Shown here in pieces: positions 9,796-63,400 of a stretch of DNA of 64,000 bases; positions within the stretch are counted from its first letter, which is position 1; the number at the start of each line of letters is the position of its first letter. The stretch covers positions 1 to 64,000 of the forward strand of contig WIXG01000066.1 in the NCBI GenBank assembly GCA_009869945.1. The letters run 5' to 3'. Below the pieces are notes generated by a model, which was given only the letters and a program-made list of their open reading frames with translations, ran no database searches and was not told the origin of the DNA. The position numbers were made by a program, and so were the translations under genes. The DNA comes from Mesaphorura yosii (taxonomy: Eukaryota; Arthropoda; Collembola; Poduromorpha; Tullbergiidae).

Positions 9796-10909
9796 ATGGA
9801 GGTGGGAAGTACGTTAAATCCGCCGTTTTCTCATTTTGGCATTTTTCTTAATATGTCTTAAGGTACTCCAAGTTAGGGAACTGTCATGACCTGTCTTTAA
9901 TAGACGCAGGAAATTCTCCAGTCGCCAAATTGCTGACGGAAGCAATCGCTCTGAACAAGGATCCTGCGGTTGGTGAGATACTGTCGAAATGCAAGTACAT
10001 GAACGACGGATTGGATGCATACATAATGAAAATGAGCTCTGAGCCAACGCCCTTACAAAAGAAGATCTACGACGACACGTACTCTCAACCATGGGCTGAG
10101 CTTCATGAGAAGGGGGTCACTCAGTCGCGGATGGGCCCCGGTGGAATGTCAGGGAAGGCGGAAGGGCAGTTTCTTAAAACAATGGCCGAGCTGACAAAAG
10201 CTGAGCGAATTCTGGAGATCGGCATGTTCACAGGGCACAGCGCCGCGTCTTTCTGTGCGTCGGAGTATTCCGTAAGACAAGCTTATTCTTAATTTCGGTC
10301 TCTGCATTTAATTCTCACATTCGCATTTGTCGAAATCGCATTTTTTTTGTAGAAGGAAGTTGTGTCCCTTGAAATTGAGCCATACTTTGCCGAATTTATG
10401 CGAGGACATTTTAAGAGCACACCAGCAGCCGAGAAGAAATCGCGGATCATACTTGGGCCTGCAATGGAAGGCCTGGAGAAATTGAAGTCTGAAGGAAAAA
10501 CGTTTGACTTGGTTTTCATTGATGCTGATAAGCTGAACTATCCGAATTACTACAAGGTAACTGCTGTGCCAGAATTTCATTGAACCGTAAGGCATCGACA
10601 TGGCGCTTATTGCTCATATGTTTTTCATAGTACGTAATGGACAATGGATTACTGACACCTGGCGGAGTGATTCTTGTAGACAACGCGTTATACTTTGGAT
10701 CAGTTTATCCAACTCCCAGCACCGAAGACGGCGCAGCAATTGCGAAAATGAATGAAATGGTTCGAAACGACGACCGCGTAGAGCAAGTAAGCATTAATAC
10801 GCTATACATGACGTGAAAACACAGTCTGACTTACATACACGATAATCTCTTTAAGGTTCTCGTCCCACTTCGTGATGGAGTGCTGCTCGTACGCTCAAAG
10901 CAAAAATGA
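9796..10909 (+). CDS. SAM-dependent O-methyltransferase (caffeoyl-CoA/catechol OMT family), copy 2
   Basis: Tandem paralogue of the upstream methyltransferase, about 264 residues. Exons: 9796-9808, 9904-10271, 10353-10556, 10631-10786 and 10856-10909. The first coding exon is 13 bases (MEVG plus one base). Motifs are ILEIGMFTGHSAASF (SAM motif I), LVFIDADKLNYPNYYK (metal/catalytic aspartates) and ILVDNALYFGSVYPTP. The conserved GKAEGQFL before motif I matches the family; copy 1 has EGAFL at the same place. It has one intron fewer than copy 1. Poly(A) signals lie near 10990. It converges on the GPCR whose stop is at 11038, so the two 3' UTRs nearly touch. Role (hydroxylated aromatic or catechol methylation) is from the family only. 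Confidence 0.9.
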
Positions 10910-11037: not shown

Positions 11038-14000
11038 TCACTTGTGGTGGTGAGCTGGTGGTTTCATTTCGATGGTCTCTTTTACTTGTGCGTTGCTTGG
11101 AGTGGTTGTGGCTGCCACGATGATCGGGCCACAGTCTTCGATACCTCCGATTTCGATGGACGACAGTTTCGAATCATCCAAGTTGCTGGCTTTTCTTGTC
11201 ATTCCAGGATTAGTCATACTTTTTGGGAGGGCGATTTTTGAGAATACTCCTGTATTCATGATAGTAAGAGTTGAATACAGTTAAATCGTGTAGAACTGCG
11301 TCTTCATCGTGTTCACTTACGTTTTAACACGGGATATTTCAATTCGAGTTCGACCATCGTTTTCCGGGTGCACACGAATATCATGAATATGGCGATGGAT
11401 TGAAATATGTTGATCAAATCAAATATCAGCCAGTACCACTTGAATTCGTCTTCGTGTGCCGCGAATGAAATGACTTCAAATATCCAAGGGATTCCCATAA
11501 TCAAGTACAGTTTGGCAAATAGTCGGATCAGTTCACTGTGAAATACATAATTTTGAGCAATAAACTTTCAGGTCGGGGCCCCAAGCGGTATATTTAACTT
11601 ACGCTTGCTTTCTGGTTTGCTTCGAGTCGGACGAATTACTGAAGTTTGACTCCACTTTGGCTTTCTTTTGTATCTGATACATCTTGAACGCAGTTGTCGT
11701 GAAGAAGGCCAAGTTACTCAGGAGGAGAAAACCGACGGGGCCGTACATGTACGCCCAGAATGCATCACGAGAGCCGATGTTGCAAGTGAATCTGCCATAC
11801 TCAGGAATAATGACTTCGCTTTCAATGTCCGAACTAGTAGTAGTAGAATGCAAAATGATAATTAGAATCGAGACACAAAGTTGGTTCCAAGTTTTAAATT
11901 CGTGTTTCATAAGCTTACTCGTAAATTGCTTCAAGAATCAGACCAATGCATACGATAATGAGTGGGATGCCAAATCCGAATAGCGCGTAAGCGGCAAGTC
12001 TTCTGAAGCCGTTGAAGTATCCAATCGGTGAATTTATGGCCCTCACAGTCCACCAAATTTCGAAATTTAGCGTAGTTAGCCAGCAGAAGGTTGAGAGAAA
12101 GAAGAAGTGCATTCCAATACCTGCGAAGAATAAATTTAACGTACATTTATCATATATCCAAAGTGAATTAGAATTGCATTTCGACACGAAACACGACTGG
12201 TACGTGAATCTTCGCGTAAGACTTACCGATTGTTCGACAAAGCCCAGAATTCGTGAGCATATCCTCATCGAAATGATGTGAAAAATACGACAGTATGAAG
12301 AAGAAGTACATAAAAAGCAGCGTTGCAATGTAGCAAAATTCTGGAATGAAAAAGTCCATTGTAATAGACAAAGAGAATTGTAAAATTTGTGCATAATAAA
12401 TTCGCAAAGCGATGACTTACGTGTCCATCTTTGGATGTTGTGTTTGTATTTTTCCCACAGTAATCCAAATACGATGAGTGTCAGAATAAGGAATAATGAA
12501 GAGATTGTCATTGACACACCATAAACTTGTGAAATTGTGGTCTGCAAATGAAAAGCTGGATGAGAATGACATTCACGAACGCGAACTTTCGACTTTCGTC
12601 AAATGTTTGCAAAGAATTTGTGTTGAAACGTGCCTCAGAAGTTGCGACTTCCTTGTAGCAGAATAGTATGACTGAATCTTCTTCTTCTCCTCTGAACCCC
12701 GAATGATTCCCATGCAAATTCATTGAACCATCCAGACAATAATCGCCAATTGGCAGGAAGGTCCAGTGTCGCTTTCGTATCCTTGAAATCACCGTGCCGT
12801 CATGAAGGACTCGGAATCTGAACGACATCACATGGGATTTAAACTATTTCTTGTACTTCACTTAGCTTGTGAAAAAGCAAAATAAGCTTGCGGAATGGAC
12901 ATGTTCTTACACAATGCCATGACTGCCATCCTGGACACTCTTCAACGGGAACATGTACGGATGTCCGTAGTCGCACCAGCCATGAGCTGGATGATAGGCG
13001 ATGTAATGAGGTGTAACATTTTTCCTGACGTCCGCGCTCATTTTGGTGTAGCGATCAGCGTACAGGGTCGGCTCCCAGGATTTCTTGCCGGATGATCCGC
13101 ATTTCGGGACTGTGCTCGTGTCCGAGAAGTCCCAGACTTGGCCCATATCACAGCATTTGGTGATGCATGGTCGCGAGTCGTCACAAGTCGGGTGGCATAC
13201 GCCCAGTGACACTTTATTCTCAGTCAAGCTAAAGAAGAGATGACAGAAGGGGCTTTATTTTTGCTTCAATGCAACTGGATTGCAGATTTTGTGGATAGTT
13301 GCTACCTGTCAATGCAGTACTCATTCGGCGCGTAGTACTCAAGACCAACTTTCAAGTATCCATTTGGCGTGAACGCGACATAGTCCGAGTCAAGCGGATT
13401 TTGGCTGTGTGCACCTCTCCTGCCTCCTTCGTTGTTGTAGTTGATTGGGACCGAGACGCTAAAACTTCCCTTTGCACAATTTGGTAGCCCTGTCTTGAGT
13501 CTACACCAACAGACGAGAAGAATAGAATTAATGAACCATTCATTCAAATGCAATACGCAGTGGCAATTGGGCATTGGATTATGAAATGAGAAATATGAAA
13601 GTCCGCTTATTTGTTTTGATGATTATGAGTCGATTATGAGTTTGCAGATTTTTTGTGTGTACTGCCTAATGACGCGAACTGCAAATGCGATGTCCAATTC
13701 AGTAATCAATTCGTTAATGTCCATTTCACTTTTGTCATGTCTCAGGAATCATGTCATTGCCATCTTCGTAAATCGCGATTCGTGATGGCTTTGAGCCTAC
13801 CTGAATTTGACTTCTTCATCGTCTCCAAGACTCTCCTCGTACACGTAAGTCAGCAGTTCTCGTGGCAGCTTGAAGAAGGGTCCAAAAGGCTCTCCAGTGG
13901 CATTCCCTTCCGGTGTACTCTTGCAGGTCGTGGTGTTATCGTTGAACAATGACTGGAATGGACAGCACGTTCTGATTTGAGCTGCTTCATCGTGGCCCCG

Positions 14001-26520: not shown

Positions 26521-28462
26521 CTATGGAACTGTGAAAGCCTCCGTATCAATGAGCAGCCCAGTTGGATCCGACCGAACTTCAGGAGTGACCAGCCGTACAG
26601 TTACTGTCCAGTTCCCAGGATGAATGTTTGTCACCAACACCTCGTCGTCGTACTGCCCTTGATCGACCGAGTTGTGAACCCAGCGTATCTCCAGTCGCTC
26701 GCTCTCAACCTCATTGCCAGGAGCGCGGAATTGTCCCAGCTTCAATGTGTTCACGGTTGCATTGCGGCTACCGTTGACAGGCGTGTGCACGGTGACTCCA
26801 TCGATGAGGGAGACTCGCCCCAGGAATTGGTACCACATTCCTTCCTTGCACACGTGACAGAATCTGGCATGGGTAATATTTCTCATAAGACAGCCTTCGT
26901 TAGTGGGTCGCAGAGTTTTTCGACGTGCGGGAGCTTCGCCCCAAGTTGGATAAGCGGATATGTGGTCGTTATCCGTGACAAACTCGGATTCTGAACCATA
27001 CTCGTGAATGTTGATGGAGGCAATCATTCGCGGAATCATCGGATGTGTCGACGGGGTCTTTGATCGAACAGAGAAGGTATGGCTGCCAGCGCTGAAGCCT
27101 TGGGTCCCCTTCCAACTGTAAAATTCTCGATCATCAAAGCCAGTCGTGTTCCAGGGCAGGATTTCTCCGTCCATTCTGAACTCCAGCGAGTCGTATTCAC
27201 CTGCAGCACTGACAGATACCAAGCAATACCACCTGCCGTACGTACCGTCTGATGTAAACGTGAAGTTTTGTTGCCCTGCGGAAAGGTCCGCCCACGGATA
27301 CGCGAGAAGTCGGTACATTGCGCGCTCTTCTCGTTGAGGTCCAGTCAACCATGACGTCCAACCTAAAGTATTGACGCTGGTCGCACTATTTACGCCGTAG
27401 TATGTCGGACTATTGTCGTACTCATCGCCAACTTGTGCAAAATTATGCCCCATCTCGTGCCTGAGCACAATTGTGCCGGTCCGGTTCGATTTTGTGGAGA
27501 TCACAAATTCGCCGCCAAGTCCACCGTAAAAATCGTCGTTTCCAATCAAGCTCGGATAGTCGCAGCCACTCGGTCCCGTCAATAAGCAGACCTGCCGAGC
27601 GTAAGTTGGATTCCCTGGCCAAATCACGCGGAGTTGGCCAGATTCACGATATAGACGGAAGGGCGTGTTTTGAGGCCCGTTGTAGCCGATCCCGGAATCC
27701 ACACTTTCGTCGTAAATTGCCCAAATATTGAAGAGAGGGAGATAAGAACGAAATGTTTCACCCTCAAACATTTCTGTGGTCAGGCGCTGAATGTCGTCGA
27801 TGAATTGCTGTCGTTGCGAGGCAGTATATCCGTCGCCCATGAAGACAACATCAATCCGATTTGAACTGTTGCCGCTGTCCACGATTTTTATCACTTCCGG
27901 CGCACGCGGGACGGCGTCGTATTCGTCGGAAGCTCCTTTTCTCGACGTCACAGTTTGCAGAGGCTCGATTGGCTTGGTGAATTTGCAGATTGTGTCAATG
28001 TGACCTTGAATAATTTCTCGGCTATGACCAAATATTTCAATTATCGTCGAAGCGCCTTCATCGAAGAGCGAACTTTTCTCATTGTCAACCGGTGCCTGAA
28101 TCGCAGGTCGCTCCACGACGTGCACTTCGCCTTCATGCTTCAAACCGCGATACTTCTTGATCACTGCATCGGAGAGAATGGTACAGACTTCCTCGTCTCG
28201 TATTGTTGACTTGTGAATTCGCAAATGGTACGATTTTGCAGATCTAGTGAAAAAACCATAGTTCTAAGGCCAGACGCTAACACATCTAATGTTATTTGAC
28301 GAGATATACAAATCAGACTTTTTGGTTGAATATTTAGTCGTCGTAATGAAATTGTTATTGGCGTAAGGAGGGGCCGAAGCCAAAGCTGTTCACTTAACTT
28401 AATCTGACTTACGACTGTGCGACCAAAATTTGCAAAATTCCGAGTACTACTACAAGTTTCAT
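26521..28462 (-). CDS. Secreted M64-family zinc metallopeptidase, copy 1
   Basis: Peptidase of the M64 family, named for bacterial IgA peptidases. Exons 28413-28462 and 26521-28243 give 590 residues. The 50-base first exon encodes a signal peptide (MKLVVVLGILQILVAQS), so the product is secreted. An N-terminal domain of about 115 residues is followed by the catalytic domain: IDVVFMGDGYTASQRQQF, then GGLGGEFVISTKS, then the zinc motif VLRHEMGHNFAQVGDEYD. Met-turn-like GCLMRNITHARFC lies farther on, and a C-terminal sheet-rich region ends EVRSDPTGLLIDTEAF. It has all conserved residues seen in the two copies at 35-40 kb but a longer linker after the N-terminal domain. The native substrate is unknown; an extracellular digestive role is inference. 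It lies directly downstream of SLC6 copy 2 on the same strand. Confidence 0.88.
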
Positions 28463-34981: not shown

Positions 34982-36794
34982 TTATTCCTGAACTGTAAAA
35001 GTCTCCGAATCAGTCAAGAGCCCATTCGGGTCTGACCTGACTTCTGGCGTCTCGAGCGTCACGGTCACTCTCCAGTTCCCGTGCGCAATGTCGACGATCG
35101 TGAGCTGATCATTGAACTGCTCTTGATCGATTGAGTCACGACTCCAGCGAATGTGCAGCGTCTCGCCTTGAACTTCATTGCCGGGCGGTCGCCATTGACC
35201 CAATTTGAGCGTGTTCACGGTTGCGAAGCGAGGACCATCGACTGGAGTCTGCACGTCGACGTCGTCAATGAGCGAAATGCGATTCAGAAACTGCCACCAC
35301 ATGCCCTCTTTGCACACGTCGCAGAAGTGAATGTAAGTCATGTTCCGCATCAGACACCCTGAATTCGTTGGTCGATAAGTTTTACGACGGGACACGTCCC
35401 ATGTTGGGTAGAACGAGACGTGGTCATTGTTCGATACGAATTCGTCTTCGGATCCGAACTCGTAAATGCGCACAGACGCAATCATGCGGGGGATTTCCGG
35501 ATGCGTTGGATTCGTCTTGCTACGCACAGAGAATGAGTGGAGTCCGGAGCTGAATCCCTCATCCGCGCTCCATTCGTAGAATTCACGGTCGTCGAATCCG
35601 GTTGTGGTCCAAGGAAGGATTTGGCCGTCCAACGAAAATTCAAGGCAGTCGTCCTCGCCAGCAGCGCTCACGGACACGCTGATCGACCAGCGGCTGTACT
35701 GTCCGTCGGAGCTGAAAGGAACACTCCAAGCTCCAGTAGACAAGTCCTGCCACGGATACTCCAGCACTCTGAATATCGCCCGCTCTTCTCGCCGCGTCGT
35801 CCCATTCAGCCAGTTCGCCCATGCGATTTGCTCAATACTTGTTGCTGAATTAACTCCACGATACGCAGAACCATTGTCGTATTCCTCGCCCACGTTCACA
35901 AAGTTGTGGCCCATCTCGTGTCGGAGCACGACAGTCCCGGTTCGAGTTGACTTTGTGGAGATCACAAATTCGCCGCCAAGTCCCCCGTAAAAGTCGTCAT
36001 TGGCAATCAAGCTTGGGTAGTCGCAGCCATTTGGCCCGGTGAGAGTGCAAACTTGCCTTGCATAGCCCGCATTGCCTGTGTAAATCGCCCGCAGTTGACC
36101 TGCCTGGCGGTACAGGCGGAACGGTGTGTTCTTGGCTCCATTATATCCGATTCCAGAGTCGACACTTTCGTCGTAAATGGCCCAGATGTTAAGGAGCGGC
36201 AAGTAAGACTTGAAAGTGTCGCCTTCGAACATTTCCGTTGTAAGACGTCGAATGTCGTCGAAGAATTGATCTCTCTGGGATGCGTTGTACCCGTCACCCA
36301 TGAACACGACGTCAATGCGATTGAGGTTGTCACCGCCGTCGACGATTTTGAGTACTTCGGGTGCACGCTGACCCTTCTCGATGGTCAACGGTTGCAGTGT
36401 CTGCAGTGTCTCGCATTCAACATTGAGCTCAGCCTGCATCAAATTGCGGTTCTTCCCAAACAGCTCGATGATAATAGCCCCATCTTCTTTATGCATGTCA
36501 GGGTCAGCGGCGGCTGATGATACGTTTATGACAACTTCTTGGTCATTCTTCAGCATGCCATATTTTTTTACATGCCCGTCCGAAAGAATCGTGCATTCTC
36601 CTGCCTTGCCCTTGTGGACTTTGAGATGGTGTACGAGGCCAAATCTGCAAAAGAAAAGAAGAGAGTGTATCAACATTTTTCGAGATAAGAATTGAAATGA
36701 GAGTTCAGTTTACGAGAATTCTGGCTGAATTCTGTCTTGCTTACGCCAGACTAAACGTGTGAACGACCAAAATTAACTTCACGATTTGCCTCAT
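34982..36794 (-). CDS. Secreted M64-family zinc metallopeptidase, copy 2
   Basis: Exons 36745-36794 and 34982-36644 give 570 residues. As in the other copies, the first exon is exactly 50 bases, encodes a signal peptide (MRQIVKLILVVHTFSLA) and ends in phase 2. Catalytic marks: IDVVFMGDGYNASQRDQF, GGLGGEFVISTKS, zinc motif VLRHEMGHNFVNVGEEYD and Met-turn-like GCLMRNMTYIHFC. The C-terminal region ends EVRSDPNGLLTDSETF. AATAAA on minus lies about 50 bases after the stop. It is divergent from copy 3, sharing a 1-kb promoter region, and lies upstream of SLC6 copy 2 on the same strand. Confidence 0.88.
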
Positions 36795-37838: not shown

Positions 37839-39650
37839 ATGAAGCTGCTGATCTTCGCGAGTGTCCTGGCTTCGATAGCCGTGACCACGTAAGTAACTAA
37901 TCACCTACAACAATGGTCGATTCATCAAATCTTTCTTACTACGAACTTTAAATGCATTTTATTCTCAATAATTTTACGATGTTTTAGCTCTGGTCAGGCT
38001 TTCCATGTGAAAATCCATAAAAACGGGGCCGATGGCGTTTGTACCCTTCTGGCTAATCACCAGCTGACGAAGTTTCACAACCTGAAGCACGAAAACGAAA
38101 TCACGGTCAACATGCGACCAGCCGTCCATGGACCAGCAGACGCCATGTTGGAGATGAAGGACAAGTCGGCCATCATTGAAATCTTTGGGAAGAATGACGA
38201 GATCATTCAAGGTCACATCGACACCCTGTGCAAGGTCATTAAGCCAATAGAGCCGTACGTGACTCCTAAAGGTCAGCGTGCACCTGAAGTAGTCAAACTT
38301 GTCGACGGTGGCGAAAATCGAAATCGTATCGATGTTGTCTTCATGGGCGACGGGTACAATGCATCCCAAAGAGACCAGTTCTTCGACGATATTCAGCGCT
38401 TAACCACCGAAATGTTTGAAGGTGAAACATTCAAGTCGTATTTGCCAGTTTTTAACATCTGGGCCATTTACGTCGAGAGTGTTGACACTGGGATCGGATA
38501 TAATGGAGCCAAGAACACACCGTTCCGCCTGTACCGAGAAGCTGGTCAACTGCGAGGCATTTACACCGGCAACGCGACAAATGCAAGACAAATCTGTACG
38601 CTGACTGGTACCAGCGGCTGTGACTACCCCAGCTTGATCGGCAACGACGACTTCTACGGCGGTCTTGGTGGCGAATTTGTAATTTCAACCAAATCAGCGC
38701 GCACTGGCACAGTTGTCCTTCGCCACGAGATGGGCCATAACTTCGTCAACGTTGGAGAAGAGTACGACAACGGTCAAGTGTATCGAGGTGTGAACTCCGC
38801 AACCACCGTCAACAACTTGGGCTGGGGTCATTGGCTCACCGGCACTCGACGAGAAGAGCGCGCGATGTACAGGCTGTTGGAGTACCCGTGGGCAGATCTT
38901 GGAAATGGTCAAACCCGAAGCTTCTCCTTCACATCCGACGGCTCGTACAGCAGATGGTACTGCTTGGTTTCGGTCAGCGCTGCTGGGGAGGCTGACTCGC
39001 TCGAATTTACGCTGGACGGACAAATTCTGCCTTGGACTTCAACTGGATTCGATGACCGGGAGTTCTACGAGTGGAAGGGTGACACGGGATTCACTTCTGG
39101 CAGCCATACATTCACCGTTCGATCCAAGACTGCCTCAACCAATCCGAACATCCCACGAATGATTGCGTCCATCAACATCCACGAGTTTGGCTCTGAGTCC
39201 GAATTTGTCATGGACAACAATCATGTTTCCGCCTATCCAACTTGGGACGTCCTCCGCCGTAAAGTCTTCCGTCCAACAAACGCCGGCTGCCTGATGCGCA
39301 ACATGACACACGCTTCTTTCTGTGACATCTGCAAAGAAGGAATGTGGTACCAGTTTCTGAGCAGAATTTCGCTCATCGACGGAGTTAATGTCACCGGTCG
39401 CTCTGTTCGAGTCAACACATTGCAGCTTGGCCAACTCCGACCCATAGACAGCCAAATAGATGGCGAACGGCTGGAAGTACGCTGGGCACTGGGTGGAGCA
39501 GATCAGATCGCGTATAACGACATGTTCAGTCTGGAGAACATTCTTCCTGGAAACTGGAGAGTCACCGTGACTTTGGTCACGCCCGAAGTTCGCTCCGATC
39601 CCAGCGGATTGCTGACCGATTCACAGACCTTTACTGTAGCCAGTAACTAA
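37839..39650 (+). CDS. Secreted M64-family zinc metallopeptidase, copy 3
   Basis: Exons 37839-37888 and 37988-39650 give 570 residues. The 50-base first exon encodes a signal peptide (MKLLIFASVLASIAVTT). N-terminal domain about residues 20-105, then IDVVFMGDGYNASQRDQF, NTPFRLYREAGQLRG, GGLGGEFVISTKS, zinc motif VLRHEMGHNFVNVGEEYD, GCLMRNMTHASFCDICKEG and a C-terminal region ending EVRSDPSGLLTDSQTF. The two His and the Glu of HEXXH are present; the acidic pair in EEYD may supply the third ligand, by analogy with the family. AATAAA lies near 39717. It is the only copy on plus. Closest to copy 2 in length and wording (both read GDGYNASQRDQF and EEYDNG). Confidence 0.9.
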
Positions 39651-40415: not shown

Positions 40416-41119
40416 ATGTTTGCAAAGGTAAGAAATATGAAACTAGGTGGGTTTCTACGTAGGCACACGTTGTCCCGTGGTTAATCTGGGATTCTTGCAC
40501 AGATTTCAGTGGTTGCAGCCATTTTTACCGTGGTCAGCGCCCAGCAGTACTTCCAAGGTCGTCCACGCGCAATTGCTCCAGCGTACGCTCCTCAAGGTAA
40601 GATCCTGAATTTACTGAGTTGTTATCCCGCATGGCGCTCTCGCTAGGCTGATTACAAATGCGTGGTTCTCTGAGCGTCGAGCGTTGTAATTTATGACATA
40701 ATGTACAGGAGAGATTAAACTAGGAAGAGAAAGTGTCACAAACCATGAATGACCACGACAAATATTGACAACCAATATTGAATTAATTGAATAATAATTC
40801 CGTAGCTTTGGTACAAGACTATCCCGCACACCACGCTCAGTACTCCTTCGGGTACGCTGTTCAGGACGCCTACACAGGTGACACGCACTCGCACCAGGAG
40901 AGCCGCGACGGGGACGTCGTAAAAGGGCAGTACCAACTTGTTGAGGATGATGGCTCACTGAGGACGGTGACCTACACGGCCGACTCAGTGAACGGGTTCA
41001 ATGCAATTGTTGATAAGGGACCGCTGCCAGTGCGTGATCTCCAGAAACTCGCGCCAGTTGTGCATCATGCGCCAGCACCAGCCGTCTATCATCAAGCTGC
41101 TCCGGCATATTTCGGATGA
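40416..41119 (+). CDS. RR-2 chitin-binding cuticle protein
   Basis: Structural exoskeleton protein, 139 residues, secreted into the cuticle. Exons 40416-40427, 40503-40596 and 40806-41119. The first exon encodes only MFAK, and the signal peptide continues in exon 2 ([14 protein letters not shown]). Exon 3 holds the extended Rebers-Riddiford domain of RR-2 type: [20 protein letters not shown], then [18 protein letters not shown] and [17 protein letters not shown]. The C-terminal tail is Ala/Pro/His-rich ([18 protein letters not shown]), usual for this family. Splitting the signal peptide by an intron after four residues is typical of arthropod cuticle genes. AATAAA is at 41202. Confidence 0.95.
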
Positions 41120-42325: not shown

Positions 42326-45300
42326 TCAACCGAATATTGTGAGCTCCTCAAGCCTCATTTTACCCATCTGACTCTCTAAACGATATCTGGCCAAATCCTT
42401 TCTCGTGACGATTCCAACAACTTCGTTTACATCATTTATCTGCAAAACATGACGTGAAGGAGATTCCAAATTTGACCTATAAAGGATAATAAAACATAAA
42501 AGCTTACAATGCAAAGGTGTCGAAGTCCCAAACCACGAAACAGTCGAAAGAGCCTTGGCATTGATGCGTTGTGAAGGCATGTGTAAGCCGCTGGGTTCAT
42601 AATCGGCCTCAGATCCACTTTGAAATTCCTCTCCTCCTCCGAAATATGGACTTGTTGAATGTTTGGGTATCTTGGGTACGCGTTTCGGAAGTACTCAAGA
42701 ATATCGCCGCGATGACTCCAATTCTCAGCAGTTTCAATGAACAGCTTGTGCTGGAGCATGACAATAAGTTGAGATCGCAGAATTAACCCACGGAACGTCC
42801 CATAATTTCTTCTCGTTGATGAGACGGGCTTGTCTACGACAGGAAATCCGTTGTGGGTTTCAGACGTCAATGTGTCTATGATGGTTCCGACTCTTTCAAC
42901 GGAATTAAAAGCGACGACGGGACAACTCATCACTTCAGTAGCATAAATGTTGTGAGACAGCGGTGGCGGCTGCCAGGGCAGGATAGGAACTCCCATGAGC
43001 CTGATGTGAGTATCGTAAATTCCTGGAAAACGCGAAAAGTTTCATTTGACTCCTTAAGCGCTTCTTAGTGTGGGTCATACCTTCGTTAAAATAGTCCCCG
43101 ACCCATTTGGCAACAACGAGAGTAATCATGAGCGGCAAACCAAGTGTCAAATTTCCGGTTGCTTCTATTAAAATTACGGTGAGACTCAATGTCATTCTGA
43201 CGACTCCGCCAAGCTGGGCCGCAGCACCAAAGAAAGCATATTTGCCGGGGTCAACCCAGCTCTTTTCTGGGAAGAAGTACAGAATTCCAGTTCCAACAAC
43301 TCGACCCCACGCGGCTCCCGTTAAGAGCGCTGGTATGAACAACCCACTTGAGACTGACAAACCGTAAGTCCAGCATGATAGGAAAAAATAGAATGTAAAA
43401 AATATGAGGACAGATGACAGTTTGTGAGAATCTGCAAAAATGGAATGGAACAATTAGAACGGGTTATGGGTTCAAACATAAGATGAATATATTGTAACGA
43501 AATCTCACTTGGAGGGTCATGAAAAAAGGAACGGACGCTAGATTCTGGCGTTTGAAACCAAATAGCACCAATTGCGGAGTATTCACCATCTCCGCAATAC
43601 ATTTGAATCGGATACTTTGTTGGGTCTTCGCCGAGTGGCTTGCAATCAGTCAAGAAATAGATCATGGTGAATCCCAAGGTGGCGGTGCAACCAGCAACCA
43701 TCACTACTTCCAGCACTTTTGCCCAACTTCGATAAATATGCCTAGAAGTCAACACTAGTTAGCACTAGCGCTCAAGCAACTTGACAAAATAACACAATGA
43801 GTTTATTTTTAACAAATACCTCATCCGATAGACGGTAAGTTTGTAGTTTGTGTAGTTAAAGAGAGCTCCTAACAACCCGCCAATCGTTCCCATCAATATG
43901 AATATAGGAAATTCAACGAAATCATAGTTTGTATTCTCGAACTTTCCGAAGTTGAGAAGACCAGCATAGGTGAGTTCTCCTGTGAATGGAGTTATCTTTA
44001 ATTAGAACGGACTTATTGCATGAGATTTGCTTAAACAAATACCTGGCCGTCCATGATAGGCACTAAGAACCGTGTTCAATGTGAATGTTGACACCATGGA
44101 ACAAAAGAATATTCTCCATGTTAAACTCTGATTCCAAAAGCTAGCACCTTCTTCCAAACTGAACAGGACACCACCTAAAATAGCCGGTAAGATTGTATGA
44201 GTTATACTAAAGTGATAATACTGTCCTGAATTAGTTTACTAACCGATGGGTGCTCCAAATGCTGCCGCGACTCCTGCAGCAGCACCGCCACTTACAAAAT
44301 CTCGCTTCTCATGATCCTCTCGAAAGTTTTTGAACACTTTGAAATCTGTTCTGAAAGAAGTAGTTTTGCCTTGAGAGACTCCAGCAGCAACTGCAGCACC
44401 AGAATGGATCATCGGGCCTTCCTAAAATATGCAAGTGCATCATGCAAACGCCAGTTCGGAGCTGTCGGAGAAGCTATCTAATGACTGTATCACTGTACGT
44501 CAAGAAGACTTACCTTTCCAACAGCAAGGCCACCAACCACGGAGCACACCACGCCAAACGCTTTGACTAATAACGTCTTAAATCTTACTACGCGAGGAAT
44601 TTTTACACCGTTTAGGTAGCATTTCACTTGAGGGATGCCGGATCCTGAAGATTAAAAGGAATTACTAATATCATATTTACCTTTACCCACCAACTTTTAT
44701 TATTGTCCTTACCCTGTGCGACCGGTTCTACGTACGCGACCAATAAAGCACCAATCGTACTCGGAATAATATTCCAGAAGATCCAGACTACGAACGGAAT
44801 GGTCACACAATTCTCGTTGACACATTTATCAGTGAGGTTCTTCAGCATCGAGTATTTCCAACTGGAAATTTCTTCAATAGAAATGTCAATGGCAGACGCT
44901 ATTAAGGCGGTTATCACTCCAATAAGCAGCATGACTATCCACCGCGTTATGTCCTTCTTCTTTATAAAGTAAAATCCTTTGGTGCGCTCTTCGTCAACCA
45001 ACAACTGGTTTTCACATATATCATAGTCTAAGCTCTGTAGTAAAAGGATAGGACTTGGTTAAAAGGGTCAGGTAAGACATACAAGAATGCAAGCATACTT
45101 CAAACTTCGATGATAACAGACGCATGTTGCCGGTTAGGACTTTGGTAACTTGGGCTCTATCTTCGGCCTCTGCCTCAGCAGACGCAGACGGCGATTCTGG
45201 CACACTTTCATAGGACGCAGCTGTAATGGCATTGTAATCCGCCTCGATACCATTATGATTCTGACTCTACATAACGACAGATTCCAGATTATACATGGCA

Positions 45301-45424
45301 AAAGTTACAGCAAGAATTTCTTAGTTATGAGTTCCGTACGGTGCTTGGGATGTTTCTCCTCGTTGGACGGCGGTGGGCAGGAAGTAAAGGCGAGTCTTCG
45401 TCGACCATGTTGTGTCGATCCATG
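42326..45424 (-). CDS. CLCN7: ClC-7 type lysosomal 2Cl-/H+ exchanger
   Basis: CLC-family antiporter, 795 residues, close to human ClC-7; it exchanges chloride for protons in late endosomes and lysosomes, with OSTM1 as known beta subunit. Exons: 45341-45424, 45099-45266, 44713-45034, 44514-44644, 44244-44421, 44043-44174, 43820-43979, 43509-43741, 43081-43431, 42508-43022 and 42326-42439. Selectivity and gating motifs are all present: [28 protein letters not shown] with the gating Glu, [10 protein letters not shown] with the proton Glu, and [14 protein letters not shown]. Two CBS domains follow; the last exon encodes [11 protein letters not shown], as in ClC-7. The N-terminus carries an acidic dileucine lysosomal sorting signal (DEDSPLLP). 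ClC-7 rather than ClC-6 is chosen for LEEGASFWN, the [13 protein letters not shown] loop and the C-terminus. Confidence 0.93.
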
Positions 45425-46547: not shown

Positions 46548-49500
46548 ATGAAGCCTGTGCCTCTAATTAGCAATGGCACGCCGACGCGTATTTTAATCGC
46601 TTTGCTGGCTGCTGTGTGTGCATTTCACATCCCAGCGAAGGCGAACCACGCCCGAGCTGATTCGGTGTTTCATTTCGCCACACCGCCAGGTATGAGAAAA
46701 TTAGAGTCAATGTCGAAGGCGAAATGTCCTGAATTTGGCCAAGATACCTTTGATTTTCGCCAGGAATTTTCATTTGGAGCAGCGATTTCGAGGAATTCAA
46801 TCCGTACGATCTGCTGGCAGCGGACATGGTTGGTGAATACGTGCTTGGGGCAATACGGCCTGACAAAAGTGTTAGTTTGAGATTGACTCTCATGAGCTTT
46901 TGTAATGTCTTCCTATTTCTGGAATTCATGGTTCTGTTTACCGCCGGCTTCCTTTCGCTTACGCAGACCGAATTTCAGATTATGTTTTTCGACCCGACTG
47001 ATGTCCCTCCCAATGCTAGATCAGACTCCCATAATCAAACGACCAAGACGCAATTACTCCAAGTACAAAACAGCGGCAAGGAATACTACTGGGCGTTCTT
47101 CAAGTAAATCCAATTCAAATTAATTAATATTGTTCACTGTTTAACTTTTCGTCTGAATCCTGCATTCCTGCAATACTTGCTGTAATTTAGTTATACAGGC
47201 GTTCTGCCATCAGTCGTCTGGATGAATACGACAGTTCACACCGTCAAAGAATTTGGAACAGCGGAAGGCAATGTGATTTCCTTCAACTTCCATCTGGATG
47301 AGAAAACGTAAATAAATTCTGATCGCATGTTTCATGATTCAGTCATTCAGTTCTTAGCTTATGAATTTGGTTCACATTAGGTTTCACAGCTCGCGATTGC
47401 CATTGCCACGTAAGATATCAGATCAACTTACAATTGCACGATTCTCTAACCTCTGCTTTATTTAAACCTCCAGCGTTTGATATAAAAATTGAAATCCCAG
47501 CTAACAGCCAGGCCTGGCTAACCACACGAACATTCTTGGAATTGCCATCTTGTACGTGATTTCGATTCCAGACAGAAAGCCGGCAGTTCAACATTTAAAA
47601 CGAATCTAGAGCATATAGCGATATAGGATGTTCATTTCTTCGCACACAAACAGGGGGACTTCTGCGTTGGAGACTCAGTGGCGCTCGCCATGTAACTTGG
47701 GCACAGATAAAGAATGAAACCGCACTTGCAAACAATTCAGAGGGAACACTCACTCCAATGCCAGAATTCTTCCGTAGACTTCACAATCCATGTGCGCTGG
47801 ATTTGTGTAAGCAGCCTGCCTCATCACGCCCATTAAATGATGGACGCACTCTAGCCTAATGCCTGACTTTTTGGCTTCCAGTTGCGTTTTACACGATGAC
47901 GTCACGAAGCGAGTCCACGAAGCTATACATCCACATTCCAATTCTACTGGATGACCGATGGATCGATCTGAGTCCAGCATTTTGCAGTCAGTCCACGACT
48001 CCAGTCTCAGGTAGAATCCTGCCTGTGCTCCACTGTTGTTGCTTCTGTCTTGAACCGTACAAAATCCATAGACTGTGGAACTCTCCACCCTGAAACTCCG
48101 ATCGTTCTCACTAACGACCACATCCTGGCACTGACATCAACGGGCGTATTTGTCTCGGACCCGTTGAGTGAATCAGAAGTAAAATACGAAGACCCTTACC
48201 TACTGAAACCGCTCCTGAAATACAAATTGGTCGATCCCTGTATTAATTTCTCTGACATACTCAATTGCTTTGGGGTTAGTTCGGCTCGGTTCACTGCCGG
48301 CCCGCCCGTCGGGATACCAAAGAATTTCTTTTAGAACATTCTCCTTTATTGTCTTTTTTTTGCATCTACCTTTAGAAAGACAACACAACTATGGACATGA
48401 AGATGCACTACAACCCCGTTTGTCATCTCTATCAGCATCCAAATTATAGTGAGTTGTAAAAGTCGCACAACACATACACTGTCCAGCCCAAGGCTTGTAC
48501 ACGACCTTGGTCCAGGCACTGTCAAGCTGTTGGGAACTGAGACGTGATGATTTGCACAGGAGACACGGTAATACTTGTCCTGAAGCATACGTACGTTGGT
48601 CAAAATGGGTCAATGGCCAGTACAAATACTAGTATCAACTTGGGAATTGGTCAGAATGCCTCAGTGTCTAATACAAGTGTTAACTTGGGACTGTCTCCAA
48701 TGTTCACAGCGAGTGCTTCTTTCTTTATCTGTGTCGGCGTAGTATAGTCGAGAGACTCTAATCGAAAAGATTCGGTTCTCTATTTCAGATCATCTTTGCT
48801 GATGCTCCGTATAACAAATGGGAAATTCTGCTGAAATCAGGTGAGCTGCACTGCGCACACTAGGCAGTATTTCCAGTCTTTGATTTCACCGTCGAGTAAT
48901 CAGTATCTTTACTGATCTCTTAGTGCACGAATACGAAAATTATACCATTGTTGACATTCCCGGCATATTCTTCAACCACCAGCAGAATCATTTCGACTTG
49001 GCCCTCACGATCAGATCTCCCAGCGAGCTGAACTCGAATAAATCAGTACGGATGGTTCTGCCGCGACCTTTGACAAAGACGGCCTATTACACTGAATTAA
49101 CTGGAGTTCCAGAACGTGGGTTCCAGAGTTTTATGTTTGATCCGGATTTCAAACTGAAACGAATGCAGGTGCTTCCTGGATCGATGTAAGCGGGAAATTG
49201 CACACGCGCATACAAATCGTCTGCTGAAATTCTTCCTGGTTGATTGGCATATTTACCTGTTTTACTCGTAGGGATGTCTTCTATTATGGAAATCACTTGT
49301 GGATTTCGGAGTCTGGAGGGTATTTTAGCGTTTCAATTCGTTTTTGTGAGAATGTATGACACGAATTATATTGATGCTTTAATTGCAGCTTTCTCATTTA
49401 TCAGTCGCTTGGCGAAATTGAAGGCGGTTCTGAAATTAAAGATTGCAGCTTTGGACATGTAAGCAGAAATTAGATGCTTAAACTGCAAGCATCTTTTCTT

Positions 49501-52500
49501 GACCTTATTATTTTTCTTTAGCCTGACAGGTATTATGTATGCACAAATAAGGAAAACAGCATTCTTCTCGTCGGTCGAGTTGGGTCCTTTTAGTAAGCAG
49601 CTTTAGTTTGACAAGAATTCTGAGATTGTTGATGGAATTGATTGTTAGTGGTGTATTGTTGCTTTCATTTGACGTCAGTTCTCCAGTGGTAATGTGAGCG
49701 ACTTCGTTTAACCTTTCTTCGTGTTTCGAACATCGTAAGTACGGGAAATGGTTCATTCATTTCAGGTATCCCAACGAGGCCCGCGAAATACGCGAATTTG
49801 CGGAAAAGAAGAAGTGGATTCAGCCGATAGATAAGAACTGGGATCCAACGAAGAAGAGCGTGTACACGGAATTGAATAATGTGAGATTGCTTTCAGTATT
49901 TCGAAATGCTCATTTCACAGTGACATACGGTATGAGGTTGTATAGAATATTGCATGTAGCATTTTCTATTATCGGCGAAAATTCTCTATTCTCTTGCGCG
50001 CAGGCGGGCGCCTTTTGATGTGGTACATGCGCGACTCCGAAGTCTCAGGCCAGGCGCAGCCGGGAACAGCCACGTTGTGGAACCAGAGACCGGCCATAAA
50101 TTCACGTTCGTACGATCAAAGCATTGATGCCAGCGCCAGGGTGGAGTATCAACAAGGCGTGAACTCGGGAAATGCTGCAGCTGCAACGCCAAATGCAAGA
50201 GGAAGCGGAATCACTCGAATTGAAATCGAGTTGGCGCAGAATTCCTTCCTGAGTGGAGCCAAGTAATCACCGTCAATGCCACTGCCAGTAAGCCTTGCAA
50301 GTCTTTAATGCCAATTTCTGCAGAGACGGCCCTCTCGTGGTGATGCCCATCGATTCCGCCAGCTGCGTCCTATTCGAAGCGAAAGTACCGGACACAAAGG
50401 CACTGAAGCCGACATACCTGGATAATGTTCATGTCGGGCTTGACATTCGCTGCTCCACTGAATCGTAATAAAAACTAATGCAGCATTAAGAAGTGTAGAA
50501 GTCCTGACTCTCGACGCTGATTTGTATTTTAGACATGACGATGCGGATCCGGAGAATTGTGAGCTGTATATTCGCCATATCAAAGACATGCGTGGATACT
50601 TGGACGGATTCAAATCGAGTGTTCTCGCATACGTCGTCAATCCGATTCCAATGCGACCGTATCACTGCGCCGTAAGTCTTCACATCAACGTCAACAATTC
50701 TGTGCAACTCGAGCTGTTTAACAATACTGTACCAGCTGCTGGAGAGTGTTGGGATGGTTAGTGACGTGACGATAACGAAAGCTGTTAAGTTAAAGAATGC
50801 TGTCTAAGGTCGGACGTGGGCGGGCTTTCTTAGATGCGTACGTCGGCTGGACGCTTTTTATCCCTGGAGAGTGCAGCGTCTTGCTGGAAGGAGTTAGCGT
50901 TAATGCAACAAACTGTAACTGCACTTCGTGCACATGCGTCCAAGGATTAGCCACCAAACAAATCCTTCAGCCTGTCATTAAGACGTACGAACCATACACG
51001 AGTGTACTCATCGACATGAGCACGCCGATGTACAAGAAGGCGCAGCAGCTGCTAAGGAATAGGGTGCCAACCCACGCGGACGAAAAAGTCTCCTGGGAAC
51101 TTGAACTTGGTGAATGTACGTTTGTACTCCTGCTCCTCCCAAACTTCGTGATTAAAGAAAGCGGAGGTCGCGTCATTATGGACTTGCATGACACGGTTAC
51201 ATTCAAAATCAGGCTGGTGGCAGCAAATGAGAGTAAGTTTTCGAGCAAATCAATACTTCTTATTTAACTATTAATTGCTCTTTCCGATTTTAGAAGCTCA
51301 GGTGATGATGTAAGTCAAACTTGTACGAGGACAGGATTTCCTTGCTCTTTGCCTTAAAGTTTAACTTACGTCGTGGTCCTTCGGGGAAATAGGCAAAGAC
51401 CCCTGCTTAGGATCTCGAACAGTAATCCAGTCATCTTGCAAGTGGATCGTGATTACGCCAAGACGAGGAACCACCAAGAAGTAATTAAAAATAGCTAGAA
51501 CTGGGTTTACAGCTGCTAATTGGTACAAATTATTAAACTTTGCAACATTCTAGCTCACTGTAGTAGCACGACCCACCGGATTTGGTACGCTAAGTCGAAC
51601 TGTTAGAGATCTGTTTGTTCGTGTCTTAAATATGACTCGAAAAACTTGTGTTTTCCAACGGCTTTCTTGTAGGAATTGGAATCTCAACTCTTGTCATTCG
51701 GACAGTCGGCTGCTCAATGAAGTGCCAGACTCCCTGTTCCTTCACCATCATTTTCCAGCTAATGAGACAAGATGGCCGAGATTTGACTATAGATTTTCCG
51801 TAAGTTTATCTTGCTCTTACTCCCAGCTGCTGGTAATAGAAATCCAGACACTGAAGTTATCGATGTTGACTTGCTTCTTCTGTCTCAAGTGTCCATGTTT
51901 CACCAAAACACATCCTGAACCCCGACCGTTTTGGAAACGTTCACGACCATCTCGGGAATGTAATTTACAAGCGGCTTCCTGTAAGTCTTTCCTGCATGGC
52001 ATGGCTTTATGGGTTGACGGCAACTGACACGATAATAATTAGTGGACCCGCACCCAATTTCAGGTGAACTATCGCCCTCCGTCCCACAGAGGACCAGACA
52101 TTCCGCTCTCGGAGCATATTTACAACGGAGACCCTTCCAAGCCAAGGTTTCACGACTGGTATCGCGTCTCGAAACGAACTGGAATATACAAACAGTGCAA
52201 AAACGCCGTCAGCGCTTCGGACTGCAATTGTACAGACACGGATAGGCTCAGTGATCATCCTGACTTCACGGATTGCAAACAAATGGTAAATTACGCTGCC
52301 AGACGACCTAAATTGCATCCAGCAATTAAGAGTCTGATTTTCCCATAATCGCAAGGTTTACGTTGTCCGACGTGGCGAACCAATTCAAATTAGGGTCCGC
52401 TACAAGCCGCTGATGAATGATTCCTTGCAAGATCCAATATTCTTTCTGAAGAAAGCGCACCTTTCCGTCACACTCCAGGAAATTAATGATAGAGCAGAGT

Positions 52501-53111
52501 ATTCAGTTACTTGTAAGTTTACTGCTCGGAGATTTCGACGTGTCGGTGTCGGTGTAGTCTAAACTCAGCTTGTGTTTACAATTCCCAGCAAAATCGGACG
52601 AGTACCTACGACAAATTAACGCGGACAGAGATCTGAACCTTGGACGACGGTATTACGACGCGAACTCGCTGAAGATCACTTGCTATGGGACTGGCGTGTT
52701 TCATTTTAGAGCAGTGCTCGGGAGATTTGACAGCTTTGACCATGTATCAGCATATTTTATTGTGAGTGGCTACAGCTCCCTCCTTATTGGCCCACGGCTC
52801 CTGTCCATTACACATTTAATTAATGGCACTTATTCCTTGACCAGTTATACTCGGAGGAAAATGGAATGAGTTCACGTAAGTGCCCAAGATTTTTGAAACG
52901 TTAAGCCAATTGAGGCGATTGAGTTTGAGACATTCTTGTTTGTACTTCAGTCATGTACTTGGTGGTCTTCCTACTGACGCTGACTGCTTGCTTCGTTGCA
53001 CTTTTCTTCGCCTTCCTTCATATTCGTGGAAGATTATTGGCCAATTTGCTTCTCATGCGAGAGGAGACTCCAATGTCCATCGAGGATCGAGTGGAGCGTC
53101 AAAAAAGTTAG
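46548..53111 (+). CDS. CATSPERB: CatSper channel auxiliary subunit beta
   Basis: Single-pass extracellular subunit of the sperm flagellar Ca2+ channel. About 30 exons join in phase to about 1,357 residues: 46548-46689, 46764-47103, 47191-47307, 47381-47409, 47474-47551, 47654-47806, 47882-48010, 48072-48274, 48376-48448, 48560-48594, 48789-48840, 48924-49185, 49272-49319, 49389-49458, 49522-49583, 49766-49929, 50004-50262, 50324-50464, 50533-50728, 50809-51232, 51294-51309, 51393-51480, 51554-51584, 51673-51799, 51890-51980, 52064-52285, 52356-52512, 52589-52761, 52845-52875 and 52951-53111. An N-terminal hydrophobic segment (ILIALLAAVCAFHIPA) is followed by a long glycosylated ectodomain. 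The C-terminal part matches my recollection of vertebrate CATSPERB: NYRPPSHRGPDIPLSEH, YNGDPSKP, YKQCKNAVSASDCNCT, FTDCK and VFHFRAVL, then one TM (YLVVFLLTLTACFVALFFAF) and a short basic tail. Junctions near 46842, 48594, 49583 and 50728 are uncertain. Confidence 0.88.
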
Positions 53112-60436: not shown

Positions 60437-63400
60437 ATGTCCAGTAGTTGTGGCGTCTGCGGTTGCGGTAGTTTACACCAGCTTCTACTGGTCATTACAA
60501 TTGTTGTAGTCGTAACAGGTTCAAGCAACTCGCAAATGGCCGATACAATCGAAAATGGACATACTCGAGTTATTAACTTGTGTGGGCCTGCTGGTGAGAC
60601 AGTGGATGGAGCCATGCCAGAATACTTCGAAGTACCATCGAGATTTCGGCGCGTTGGGAACAAGCACTTGACCTTCCGGTAATGACAGCTCAATCATTAA
60701 ATAACACAAAGCGCATCTTTGAAATATGGGTTACTTTCTTTTGAAGAATTACAATTTAATTAACGGAGTCGAGTTAATCCCCCCGACTTGTTGCTTTTGC
60801 TCGTCAATTGTAAAGACTCTCCCGAAATGACCTTGTTTTCTTGCCCCGCATCGCTTTCAGATTGGCCAGTACTGGCTTCCAGTGCGGAGGAATAACAGAG
60901 ACACTAAATTTTGAAACGGGTGACGGTGAACGCAGGCGTGGCAGGGGCAGCAGCAGAATTGTCCATTCCCCAAAGCCCAACCTGTCAAGATTTGACAACT
61001 ATCCGGTATATGAAAACGGCAACGGCAATCTGCCAAGCGGAAGTACCGTCATTCCGGTGCCCCATTCATACGACTCATTAAACTCGCATCAAACTGAAAG
61101 CGCACATCTCACAGGAGGACGAATTTCACTTCCACCGCCTTCGTCTCCATTTTTCTTCACGGAAGACGGGTTCATTGTGTATGGAAATGACGTCTATCAC
61201 CCGAACGAGTATTGCCTCACAAGGTCAGCGTTGCATTTTGAGTATTCCGGCAATAAAAGTTGACAAAATCACACATGAATATTTTCTATATTTAGAAATT
61301 CACTTCACCGGGCTAACCATCAGTTTTCGGTAATTCTTTGTCTCCCAGACTGTGAAAGTTCCAGCCACGGCAAAGACAATGACGACAACTCGCGTGCCCC
61401 GATTTGCCTGAATAAATGTTGCCCGGTTGGCCAATCAATCGATTACATGACAAAGAGCTGTGCAAATTCTGGAGAGCACGTCTGGAGTCTTCAGAATGTG
61501 TACCAGGCAGTTACTGCCGTCCCACATCAAACTGCTTTCGATACAGACGACCTATCCAAAATCCCAATCGAGCAAGTGACGTTCCACATGAATGTCGCGT
61601 GGTTCCCGTCCAACTGTCCCGAAGGCTGGATCGGGGTCACAAGTTATAACCGTGAAATATACGATGAATTCGGTCTGATGCCAAATACGCAATTTCGGGT
61701 GCTGGGAGCTGGTGATGGGCGTGTGCTTGCATACAATGAAATGAGGAGAAGATGGGTACCTGTTTCGAACGGAGGAGAGAAGGACAATCCGAATCTGAAT
61801 CAGTACGTGTGTGTGGATGGTCTACAAAATTTTGACGAAGGACAGTTTTACAGCGGGCAACCAGAAGATGAGATTCTAATCCACTGTATAGAATGGAAGC
61901 GTCCGAATGCGGTGAGTTAATCAAATCATTAGAAATTAGTTCAATGAATGAGCGTCTTAAACTTGTGTATGCGTATTCTTCTGATTCATTCCTTCCAGGA
62001 GCCGGGCCGCGAACTTTACTATGGCCCCGTGCATATTCTGATTCTGTTCCTCTCCTCGACATTTCTACTCATCACCGCTTTCATTTACTACCTCAGCATG
62101 AAGAAGGAAAAGGCTTCGGTGCATGGCTGGACTGTTTTTTGCCAAATTGTGTCCATGTTCTTCACGTACATATTTCTGGGGACTTCGCATATATTCAGTC
62201 TCTTCTCAGACCAGCATACAAATACACCACTATGCGTCCTAAACGGTAAATGCATTCTTCGCAAAGCGCAAGAAATTTAAGCCGTCTTAATCTCCAATGA
62301 ACGATGCCTCGCCACTTTCTCGCAGGAATCCTCTCCCATTTCTTTACACTGTCTAGTTTCTTCTGGATGACAGCCCTTGACTTTGACATTTGGAAAACTT
62401 TCCGGTACATTTACACTTAAGACCCGCACGCGGCATGCTGTATTTATGGTCCTGCAAATTGTTGAGACATTGCCTTGCTTTTCTTGAATTAGATCAATAA
62501 ACTCCTGCCGGCAGACGAAAGGAAAGAAGAGTCTCGTGTATTACGTGCTGTTTGCACTTGGGCTGCCTGCAGTTATCATCGCAATTAGCTTGTGGCTGGA
62601 ATACACTTACCGGTAAGTCGGCCAGTTATTAATAAACTTCCTGAGTCTCCAACGGACTTTGTTATTGTTTACTTCTGGAACAGAGACACTGGCTCGGATT
62701 TCATCACTCCACAATATGGCCGACAAACCTGCTACATGTCCAATGCGGCTCTTGGCTATTACGTGTACTACATTATCGGGTTTCTTCTCTCCTGCAATGT
62801 GATCCTAATGGGCCTAACATTTAAGAACATTTATCAAGCAAGAGTGAGCACTCAGACAGTGCTTCATAAGAGTCGGACGATGGAGAGGCAACAATCATCG
62901 TAAGTTTCGTAAGCAATTCCAGCTGTAGCGTCTAAGCTGCCCACTCCTGAACCAATGCCGTCATTTTGCTAATTTCGCTACTCTGCCACTGCGACGCTGC
63001 TATCGCTAGAAGGATGCTTCCAGCTTCAATAACAATATTCTTGGAAGTGAATATCGGCTTTGGGTACCAGAAAGAGCCATTGTAATTTGTATGCTTTGCT
63101 CTTGCTTGCTCTAATTTAACTACAACTCAATTTTTTACTGCGTGTGTGACAAATAACGGTTGTCTGTGGCTCAGGTACAAATTATTCGCCAAATTACTCA
63201 TCGTGATGGGTGTCACTTGGATTCTGGAAGTGATGTCGTGGATATTCTACGAGCAGATTGAGAAATGCAGCGGAAGATACTGGATTCGGTTATTCTTTGA
63301 TGCCATCAATTACCTGCAGCCCGTGGCGATTTTTGTGATATTTGTCTGCAAACGAAAGACGCTTTACATTCTTGCGACGCGTTTCTTGTTTGTGAGACGT

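What the first reader, a model, noticed from the sequence alone, without database searches (positions are those of the whole stretch)
46548..53111. A CatSper beta subunit gene in an arthropod genome
About 30 exons join in phase into a protein whose last 350 residues match vertebrate CATSPERB in order: NYRPPS..G..IPL, DPSKP, KQC.N....CNCT, DC, FHFR, one TM, short tail. CatSper is the sperm Ca2+ channel and is known to be missing from Drosophila and other well-studied insects; its subunits are usually kept or lost together. An intact beta subunit next to an RR-2 cuticle gene and methuselah receptors therefore implies a retained CatSper complex in a non-insect arthropod lineage. I cannot say whether such a case has been reported before.
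Basis: partly seen in the sequence, partly recalled or inferred. Interest (0 to 1): 0.92.

Follow-up and report, generated by a model that had tools for sequence, protein, structure and literature searches.

The report
Arthropod CatSper beta subunit gene
An intact-looking gene for one part of the calcium channel that steers animal sperm tails sits in what looks like an arthropod genome, a group in which flies lack this channel while a few other lineages have been reported to keep parts of it.

Summary
On the + strand, 46548-53111, 32 exons join in phase into a 1,325-residue protein; all 31 introns are GT-AG, 61-221 nt. Residues 1050-1289 match Pfam CATSPERB_C at E=2.1e-43 and mouse CATSPERB, PDB 7eeb_E, at E=3e-29. 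The Ig-like and second CATSPERB domains match weakly, below cut-off, in the right order. A signal-like start, one transmembrane segment and a short tail fit. Codon scores, reverse strand, shuffles and other stretches support a real gene.

Most likely it is the beta auxiliary subunit of a sperm CatSper channel. The other subunits are inferred; no genome is held.

A springtail CatSper4 EST was printed in 2008 (PMC2572835); a 2019 survey calls arthropods heterogeneous and reports a butterfly with two pore subunits (PMC6660944). I saw no arthropod beta subunit in the listings and passages examined, which are limited. 'Non-insect' is plausible, not shown. Verdict: a new member of a known kind.

The parts
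46548..46689 (+). CATSPERB exon 1 (start codon, signal-like hydrophobic segment, residues 1-47)
46764..46870 (+). exon 2
46967..47103 (+). exon 3
47191..47307 (+). exon 4
47381..47409 (+). exon 5 (hand-set acceptor)
47474..47551 (+). exon 6 (hand-set)
47654..47806 (+). exon 7 (hand-set donor)
47882..48010 (+). exon 8
48072..48274 (+). exon 9 (residues 306-331 weakly match CATSPERB_2nd, below cut-off)
48376..48448 (+). exon 10
48560..48567 (+). exon 11, 8-nt micro-exon; uncertain, may extend to a donor within 48663-48741
48789..48840 (+). exon 12
48924..49185 (+). exon 13 (residues 410-496; from 474 weakly match CATSPERB_2nd, below cut-off)
49272..49319 (+). exon 14 (end of that weak match, residue 514, lies in exon 15)
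49389..49458 (+). exon 15
49522..49592 (+). exon 16
49679..49693 (+). exon 17 (15 nt, hand-set)
49766..49929 (+). exon 18
50004..50262 (+). exon 19
50324..50464 (+). exon 20
50533..50756 (+). exon 21
50834..51232 (+). exon 22 (weak CATSPERB_Ig-like match begins, residue 943)
51294..51309 (+). exon 23 (within Ig-like match)
51393..51480 (+). exon 24 (hand-set acceptor; within Ig-like match)
51554..51584 (+). exon 25 (within Ig-like match)
51673..51799 (+). exon 26 (Ig-like match ends, residue 1026)
51890..51980 (+). exon 27 (CATSPERB_C match begins, residue 1050)
52064..52285 (+). exon 28 (NYRPPSH...DCKQM core of CATSPERB_C)
52356..52512 (+). exon 29 (CATSPERB_C)
52589..52761 (+). exon 30 (CATSPERB_C, FHFR)
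52845..52875 (+). exon 31
52951..53111 (+). exon 32 (transmembrane segment about residues 1273-1296, short tail, stop codon)

Best explanation
The locus is an intact CATSPERB gene, the beta auxiliary subunit of the CatSper Ca2+ channel, in an arthropod-type genome. Shown: an open 32-exon gene model whose C-terminal domain is CATSPERB and whose layout is a hydrophobic start, a large extracellular part, one transmembrane segment and a short tail. Inferred: the protein is made in testis, enters the secretory pathway, spans the sperm-tail membrane once and sits beside the CATSPER1-4 pore, where its extracellular part helps build the canopy over the channel and stabilises it (picture of the mouse complex recalled, not read here), so that alkalinisation and depolarisation let Ca2+ in and change the flagellar beat. 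By inference the lineage keeps flagellate sperm and the other CatSper subunits.
For: Pfam CATSPERB_C E=2.1e-43, 149 bits against a cut-off of 27, profile positions 9-241 of 258. Mouse CATSPERB 7eeb_E E=3e-29 and 9ubw_E E=3.3e-29, the only 2 PDB sequences matched up to E=1. In the alignment to 7eeb_E 74 of 241 residues are identical, 35 of 71 in the NYRPPS-DCK core, and the 4 cysteines of the mouse core are kept (a fifth mouse cysteine, outside the core, is not). The only other Pfam matches of the whole protein up to E=1 are CATSPERB_Ig-like and CATSPERB_2nd, in the right order (fragments); no CATSPERG, D or E family was listed. Gene reality. Two hydrophobic segments only, at a Kyte-Doolittle threshold of 1.5, and 15 N-glycosylation motifs. 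Embedded in the same genome: the gene finder's model of the neighbouring CLC gene has 10 introns of 58-92 nt, this gene's median is 76 nt. All-or-none pattern of CatSper subunits: PMC2572835 section 10. Link to flagellate sperm: the mud crab Scylla paramamosain, with aflagellate sperm, has no CatSper that its authors could find (PMC8952799 passages).
Against: No transcript, genome or pore subunit could be examined. The Ig-like and second-domain matches are below Pfam's cut-offs. The first 365 residues as a fragment list no Pfam family at E up to 10 (HMMER's filters drop most above 0.1), not even the weak second-domain stretch at 306-331. The first 580 residues alone find no CATSPERB chain in the PDB; the only hits are unrelated, E=1.3 and 1.4. 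The two N-terminal stretches aligned to mouse within one search have i-Evalues of 160 and 7,800 and prove nothing by themselves. The model is 216 residues longer than the 1,109-residue mouse chain. Exon 11 is unsettled. PMC6660944 reports a butterfly and an ostrich with incomplete pore sets, so one subunit does not guarantee a whole channel.
Confidence: 0.8

Rival explanations
1. The beta subunit is kept without the full channel: the lineage has a reduced CatSper with fewer pore subunits, or beta has been given another partner.
For: Incomplete pore sets exist: Heliconius melpomene keeps two and an ostrich three (PMC6660944 section 16). The extracellular part is longer than in mouse and its N-terminal half is diverged beyond confident matching.
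Against: In the genomes surveyed in 2008 CatSper-beta was present where CatSpers were identified and missing where they were not (PMC2572835 section 10). The C-terminal core is well kept.
Confidence: 0.12
2. A recent pseudogene or a gene on its way out.
For: Exon 11 is unclear and several splice sites score low in a generic matrix. CatSper genes degenerate in birds (PMC2572835).
Against: The model has no internal stop or frameshift over 1,325 codons, though it was fitted to be open; mean codon scores are positive in all three parts of the protein.
Confidence: 0.05
3. Contaminant or misassembled DNA from another animal in an arthropod assembly.
For: CatSper is absent from Drosophila (PMC6660944 section 14). 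The species of the window is not known.
Against: Similar composition along the window, GC 0.40-0.49 in 2-kb steps; short introns in this gene and in the CLC gene next to it (the four other automatic models mix short introns with some up to 362 nt); a cuticle gene upstream and a methuselah-like receptor downstream (my reading).
Confidence: 0.03

Closest known systems
CATSPERB (CatSper beta), mouse, PDB 7eeb chain E
   Same: C-terminal domain at E=3e-29, 74 of 241 identical, 4 of 4 core cysteines, one C-terminal transmembrane segment in the same place; weak collinear matches to the second and Ig-like Pfam domains
   Different: 216 residues longer; N-terminal half too diverged to match with confidence
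CatSper4 EST of the springtail Onychiurus arcticus (EW749693.1; PMC2572835 section 10)
   Same: A subunit of the same channel in an arthropod
   Different: A pore subunit, partial EST; here a whole beta gene
Two CatSper pore subunits of the butterfly Heliconius melpomene (PMC6660944 section 16)
   Same: CatSper genes in an arthropod
   Different: Pore subunits, and an incomplete set; no beta mentioned in the parts of the text I read

Membership tests
CATSPERB | CATSPERB C-terminal domain (PF15149) | tested here: met
   E=2.1e-43, 149 bits, cut-off 27; mouse chain E=3e-29
CATSPERB | CATSPERB Ig-like domain (PF22831) just before it | tested here: inconclusive
   E=0.0016 whole protein, 4.2e-4 on a fragment, 19.1 and 20.9 bits against cut-off 27, right position
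CATSPERB | Second domain (PF21548) | tested here: inconclusive
   E=0.024 whole protein, 0.0036 on one fragment, 14.2 and 17 bits against 27; the best stretches of the two calls (306-331 and 474-514) lie in profile order; a second fragment that holds 306-331 showed no match
CATSPERB | Recognisable N-terminal region before the second domain | tested here: not met
   Residues 1-365 list no Pfam family at E up to 10, within HMMER's filters. Not treated as excluding membership: I count it as a sign of fast divergence, because the specific C-terminal domain is met
CATSPERB | Signal-like start, one transmembrane segment, short cytoplasmic tail | tested here: met
   Hydropathy maxima only at about residues 6-33 and 1268-1308; no dedicated signal-peptide predictor was run
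CATSPERB | Conserved cysteines of the C-terminal core | tested here: met
   4 of 4 in the alignment to mouse
CatSper complex | Four pore subunits CATSPER1-4 in the same genome | not testable with these tools
   No genome held; none among the 20 window frames searched
CatSper complex | Sperm-specific expression and flagellar location | not testable with these tools
   No transcript or protein data

The most novel reading that the evidence does not exclude
An arthropod keeps a CatSper beta subunit with an enlarged, strongly diverged extracellular part, serving a reduced or rebuilt CatSper channel (fewer than four kinds of pore subunit, or a new partner). This would break the rule that the subunits are kept or lost together.
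Probability: 0.12. Interest if true: 0.7.

Novelty: new member of a known kind. Interest (0 to 1): 0.36.

Why it matters
CatSper helps control how sperm of mammals and sea urchins swim. If this beta subunit was inherited and not acquired, the channel was still present in the arthropod ancestor and was lost piecemeal afterwards, and there is an arthropod lineage in which CatSper function could be tested. It adds an auxiliary subunit to the pore subunits already reported for arthropods.

Tried and rejected
Whole-genome search for CATSPERB: no genome is held for this window. Relatives of exon 28 in viral and prokaryote contigs: patterns hit 2 and 14 stretches, none confirmed; expected for an animal gene. 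Rfam and tRNA scans of the window to place the organism: nothing. Automatic gene models: the finder made 56 exons at a splice penalty of 1 and 36, 26, 23 and 21 at penalties of 6, 8, 9 and 10; I kept their well-supported boundaries and set the rest by hand. Literature: the listings (20 of 21 papers shown), 24, 25, 26, 29 and 30 were looked through; two searches were badly posed (25 of 1,726 and 30 of 666 papers listed, none of these with CatSper in it) and say nothing; two searches found no paper. Cai et al. 2014 is not held. Passages of PMC8147001, PMC5406480, PMC10120453 and PMC6259924 gave nothing on arthropod CatSper; passages of PMC8952799 say that CatSper was not found in the mud crab genome. 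The figure of PMC6660944 that lists arthropod species cannot be seen, so I do not know which arthropods it scores as having CatSper.

Species guess considered: a springtail would fit the printed CatSper4 EST, but the Folsomia candida genome has 37.5% GC (PMC5490193 passages) against 0.40-0.49 in this window, and nothing tested here proves the group.

Full report
What is there. The window is intron-rich animal DNA with GC 0.40-0.49 in 2-kb steps. Joining open frames at GT-AG sites between 46548 and 53111 on the + strand gives 32 exons, 3,978 nt with the stop, and a 1,325-residue protein. A first joined version was out of frame from exon 7 on, until the exon-6 donor was moved by 4 bases. The 31 introns are 61-221 nt long, median 76. 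Exon 11 is the weak point: as an 8-nt micro-exon it keeps the frame, but an open frame runs on for about 57 codons to candidate donors up to 48741.

Is it a real gene. A small gene finder, trained on other long frames of the window, scores 97.2 here (its own 26-exon model), 24.6 on the reverse strand, 3.7 to 20.0 on 10 Markov resamplings, and 0.9 to 8.7 on four other, shorter stretches on both strands that I picked as looking non-coding. In the hand-finished model the chosen frame has the best codon score in 25 of 26 exons of at least 45 nt; the miss is the last exon, whose stop codon is penalised, and exons 24 and 26 win narrowly. The summed codon score is +92.4, against -254.6 and -265.2 for the two other frames; part of that gap comes from stops in the other frames. 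The open frame is not independent evidence, since boundaries were chosen to keep it.

What it is. Pfam gives CATSPERB_C over residues 1050-1289 at E=2.1e-43 and, below cut-off, CATSPERB_Ig-like over 943-1026 and CATSPERB_2nd at 306-331; nothing else up to E=1. On fragments the Ig-like match is E=4.2e-4 and the second-domain match E=0.0036 with two stretches, the best at residues 474-514; the fragment of the first 365 residues lists nothing (a CFAP65 Ig match at E=0.14 is taken as chance). In the PDB only two sequences match up to E=1, both CATSPERB (7eeb_E and 9ubw_E). The stretch aligned to 7eeb_E has 74 of 241 identical residues, its core 35 of 71; the four cysteines of the mouse core are kept, a fifth mouse cysteine further on is not. 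The 580 N-terminal residues alone do not find CATSPERB in the PDB. Hydropathy shows one signal-like segment at the start and one transmembrane segment at the end with a short tail.

Surroundings. Upstream lie a cuticle gene (Chitin_bind_4, frame 40787-41116) and a CLC chloride-channel gene on the - strand (about 42327-45423); downstream a U-box gene on the - strand (about 53.3-55 kb). Further out are three M64 peptidase genes, two SNF transporters, two O-methyltransferases and methuselah-like receptors at both ends ('methuselah-like' rests on a 7tm_2 match for one copy and on my reading of the others). The CLC model's ten introns are 58-92 nt, like those of the CatSper gene; the four other automatic models mix such introns with some up to 362 nt, part of which may be finder errors. 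This speaks against contamination but does not exclude it. No tool named the organism; that RR cuticle proteins mark arthropods is recalled knowledge.

How it most likely works. By membership in CATSPERB it is a single-pass auxiliary subunit whose extracellular part stands over the CATSPER1-4 pore in the sperm tail (the mouse complex is the PDB entry 7eeb; its details are recalled, not read here). Its role here is inferred: stabilising a channel that lets Ca2+ in on alkalinisation. The presence of the other subunits is inferred from the 2008 observation that beta was found where CatSpers were found and missing where they were missing (PMC2572835 section 10). A mud crab with aflagellate sperm lacks a detectable CatSper according to its authors (PMC8952799 passages), which fits a role tied to the flagellum.

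What is already known. Cai and Clapham 2008 (section 9 and part 1 of section 10 read; passages) found no CatSper complex in the protostome genomes then sampled but report a CatSper4 EST from the springtail Onychiurus arcticus. Romero and Nishigaki 2019 (part 1 of 6 of the text and sections 11, 14 and 16 read; passages) call the arthropod distribution heterogeneous, find none of the three proteins they studied in Drosophila, and two pore subunits in Heliconius; their criterion for CatSper was four pore subunits, and their species figure was not visible to me. Chung et al. 2017 (PMC5362262, passages) describe the same loss pattern for CatSper epsilon as for beta and gamma. In the listings, and the passages I opened, I saw no arthropod beta subunit; the library lacks most subscription papers and no protein database of animals was searched, so absence from print or from databases is not claimed.

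Verdict.

Noticed in passing
26524-28263 (-), 34985-36709 (-), 37893-39647 (+): Three M64 (IgA peptidase-like) genes, each mostly one uninterrupted frame of 575-585 codons, in a window whose modelled neighbours have many short introns; possibly of foreign origin. A scan of prokaryote contigs with the third copy found no confirmed relative.
   Followed up: partly
0.4-1.9 kb, 3.9-5.9 kb, 11.6-14.2 kb (-) and 60.6-63.6 kb (+): Several methuselah-like 7TM receptor genes. One frame (751-1596) matches 7tm_2; three ectodomain pieces tested (12910-13254, 60814-61260, 61279-61917) match no Pfam family.
   Followed up: partly
8073-9063 and 9852-10813 (+): Two neighbouring O-methyltransferase genes (Methyltransf_3), probably tandem copies.
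   Followed up: no
48541-48744 (+): Open frame rich in Asn, Ser and Thr with an imperfect internal repeat (NTSINLGIGQNASVSNTSVNLGL) between exons 10 and 12 of CATSPERB; may be an alternative longer exon 11.
   Followed up: partly
50834-51232 (+), exon 22: Cysteine-rich stretch NATNCNCTSCTCVQG before the Ig-like match, outside the Pfam matches listed.
   Followed up: no
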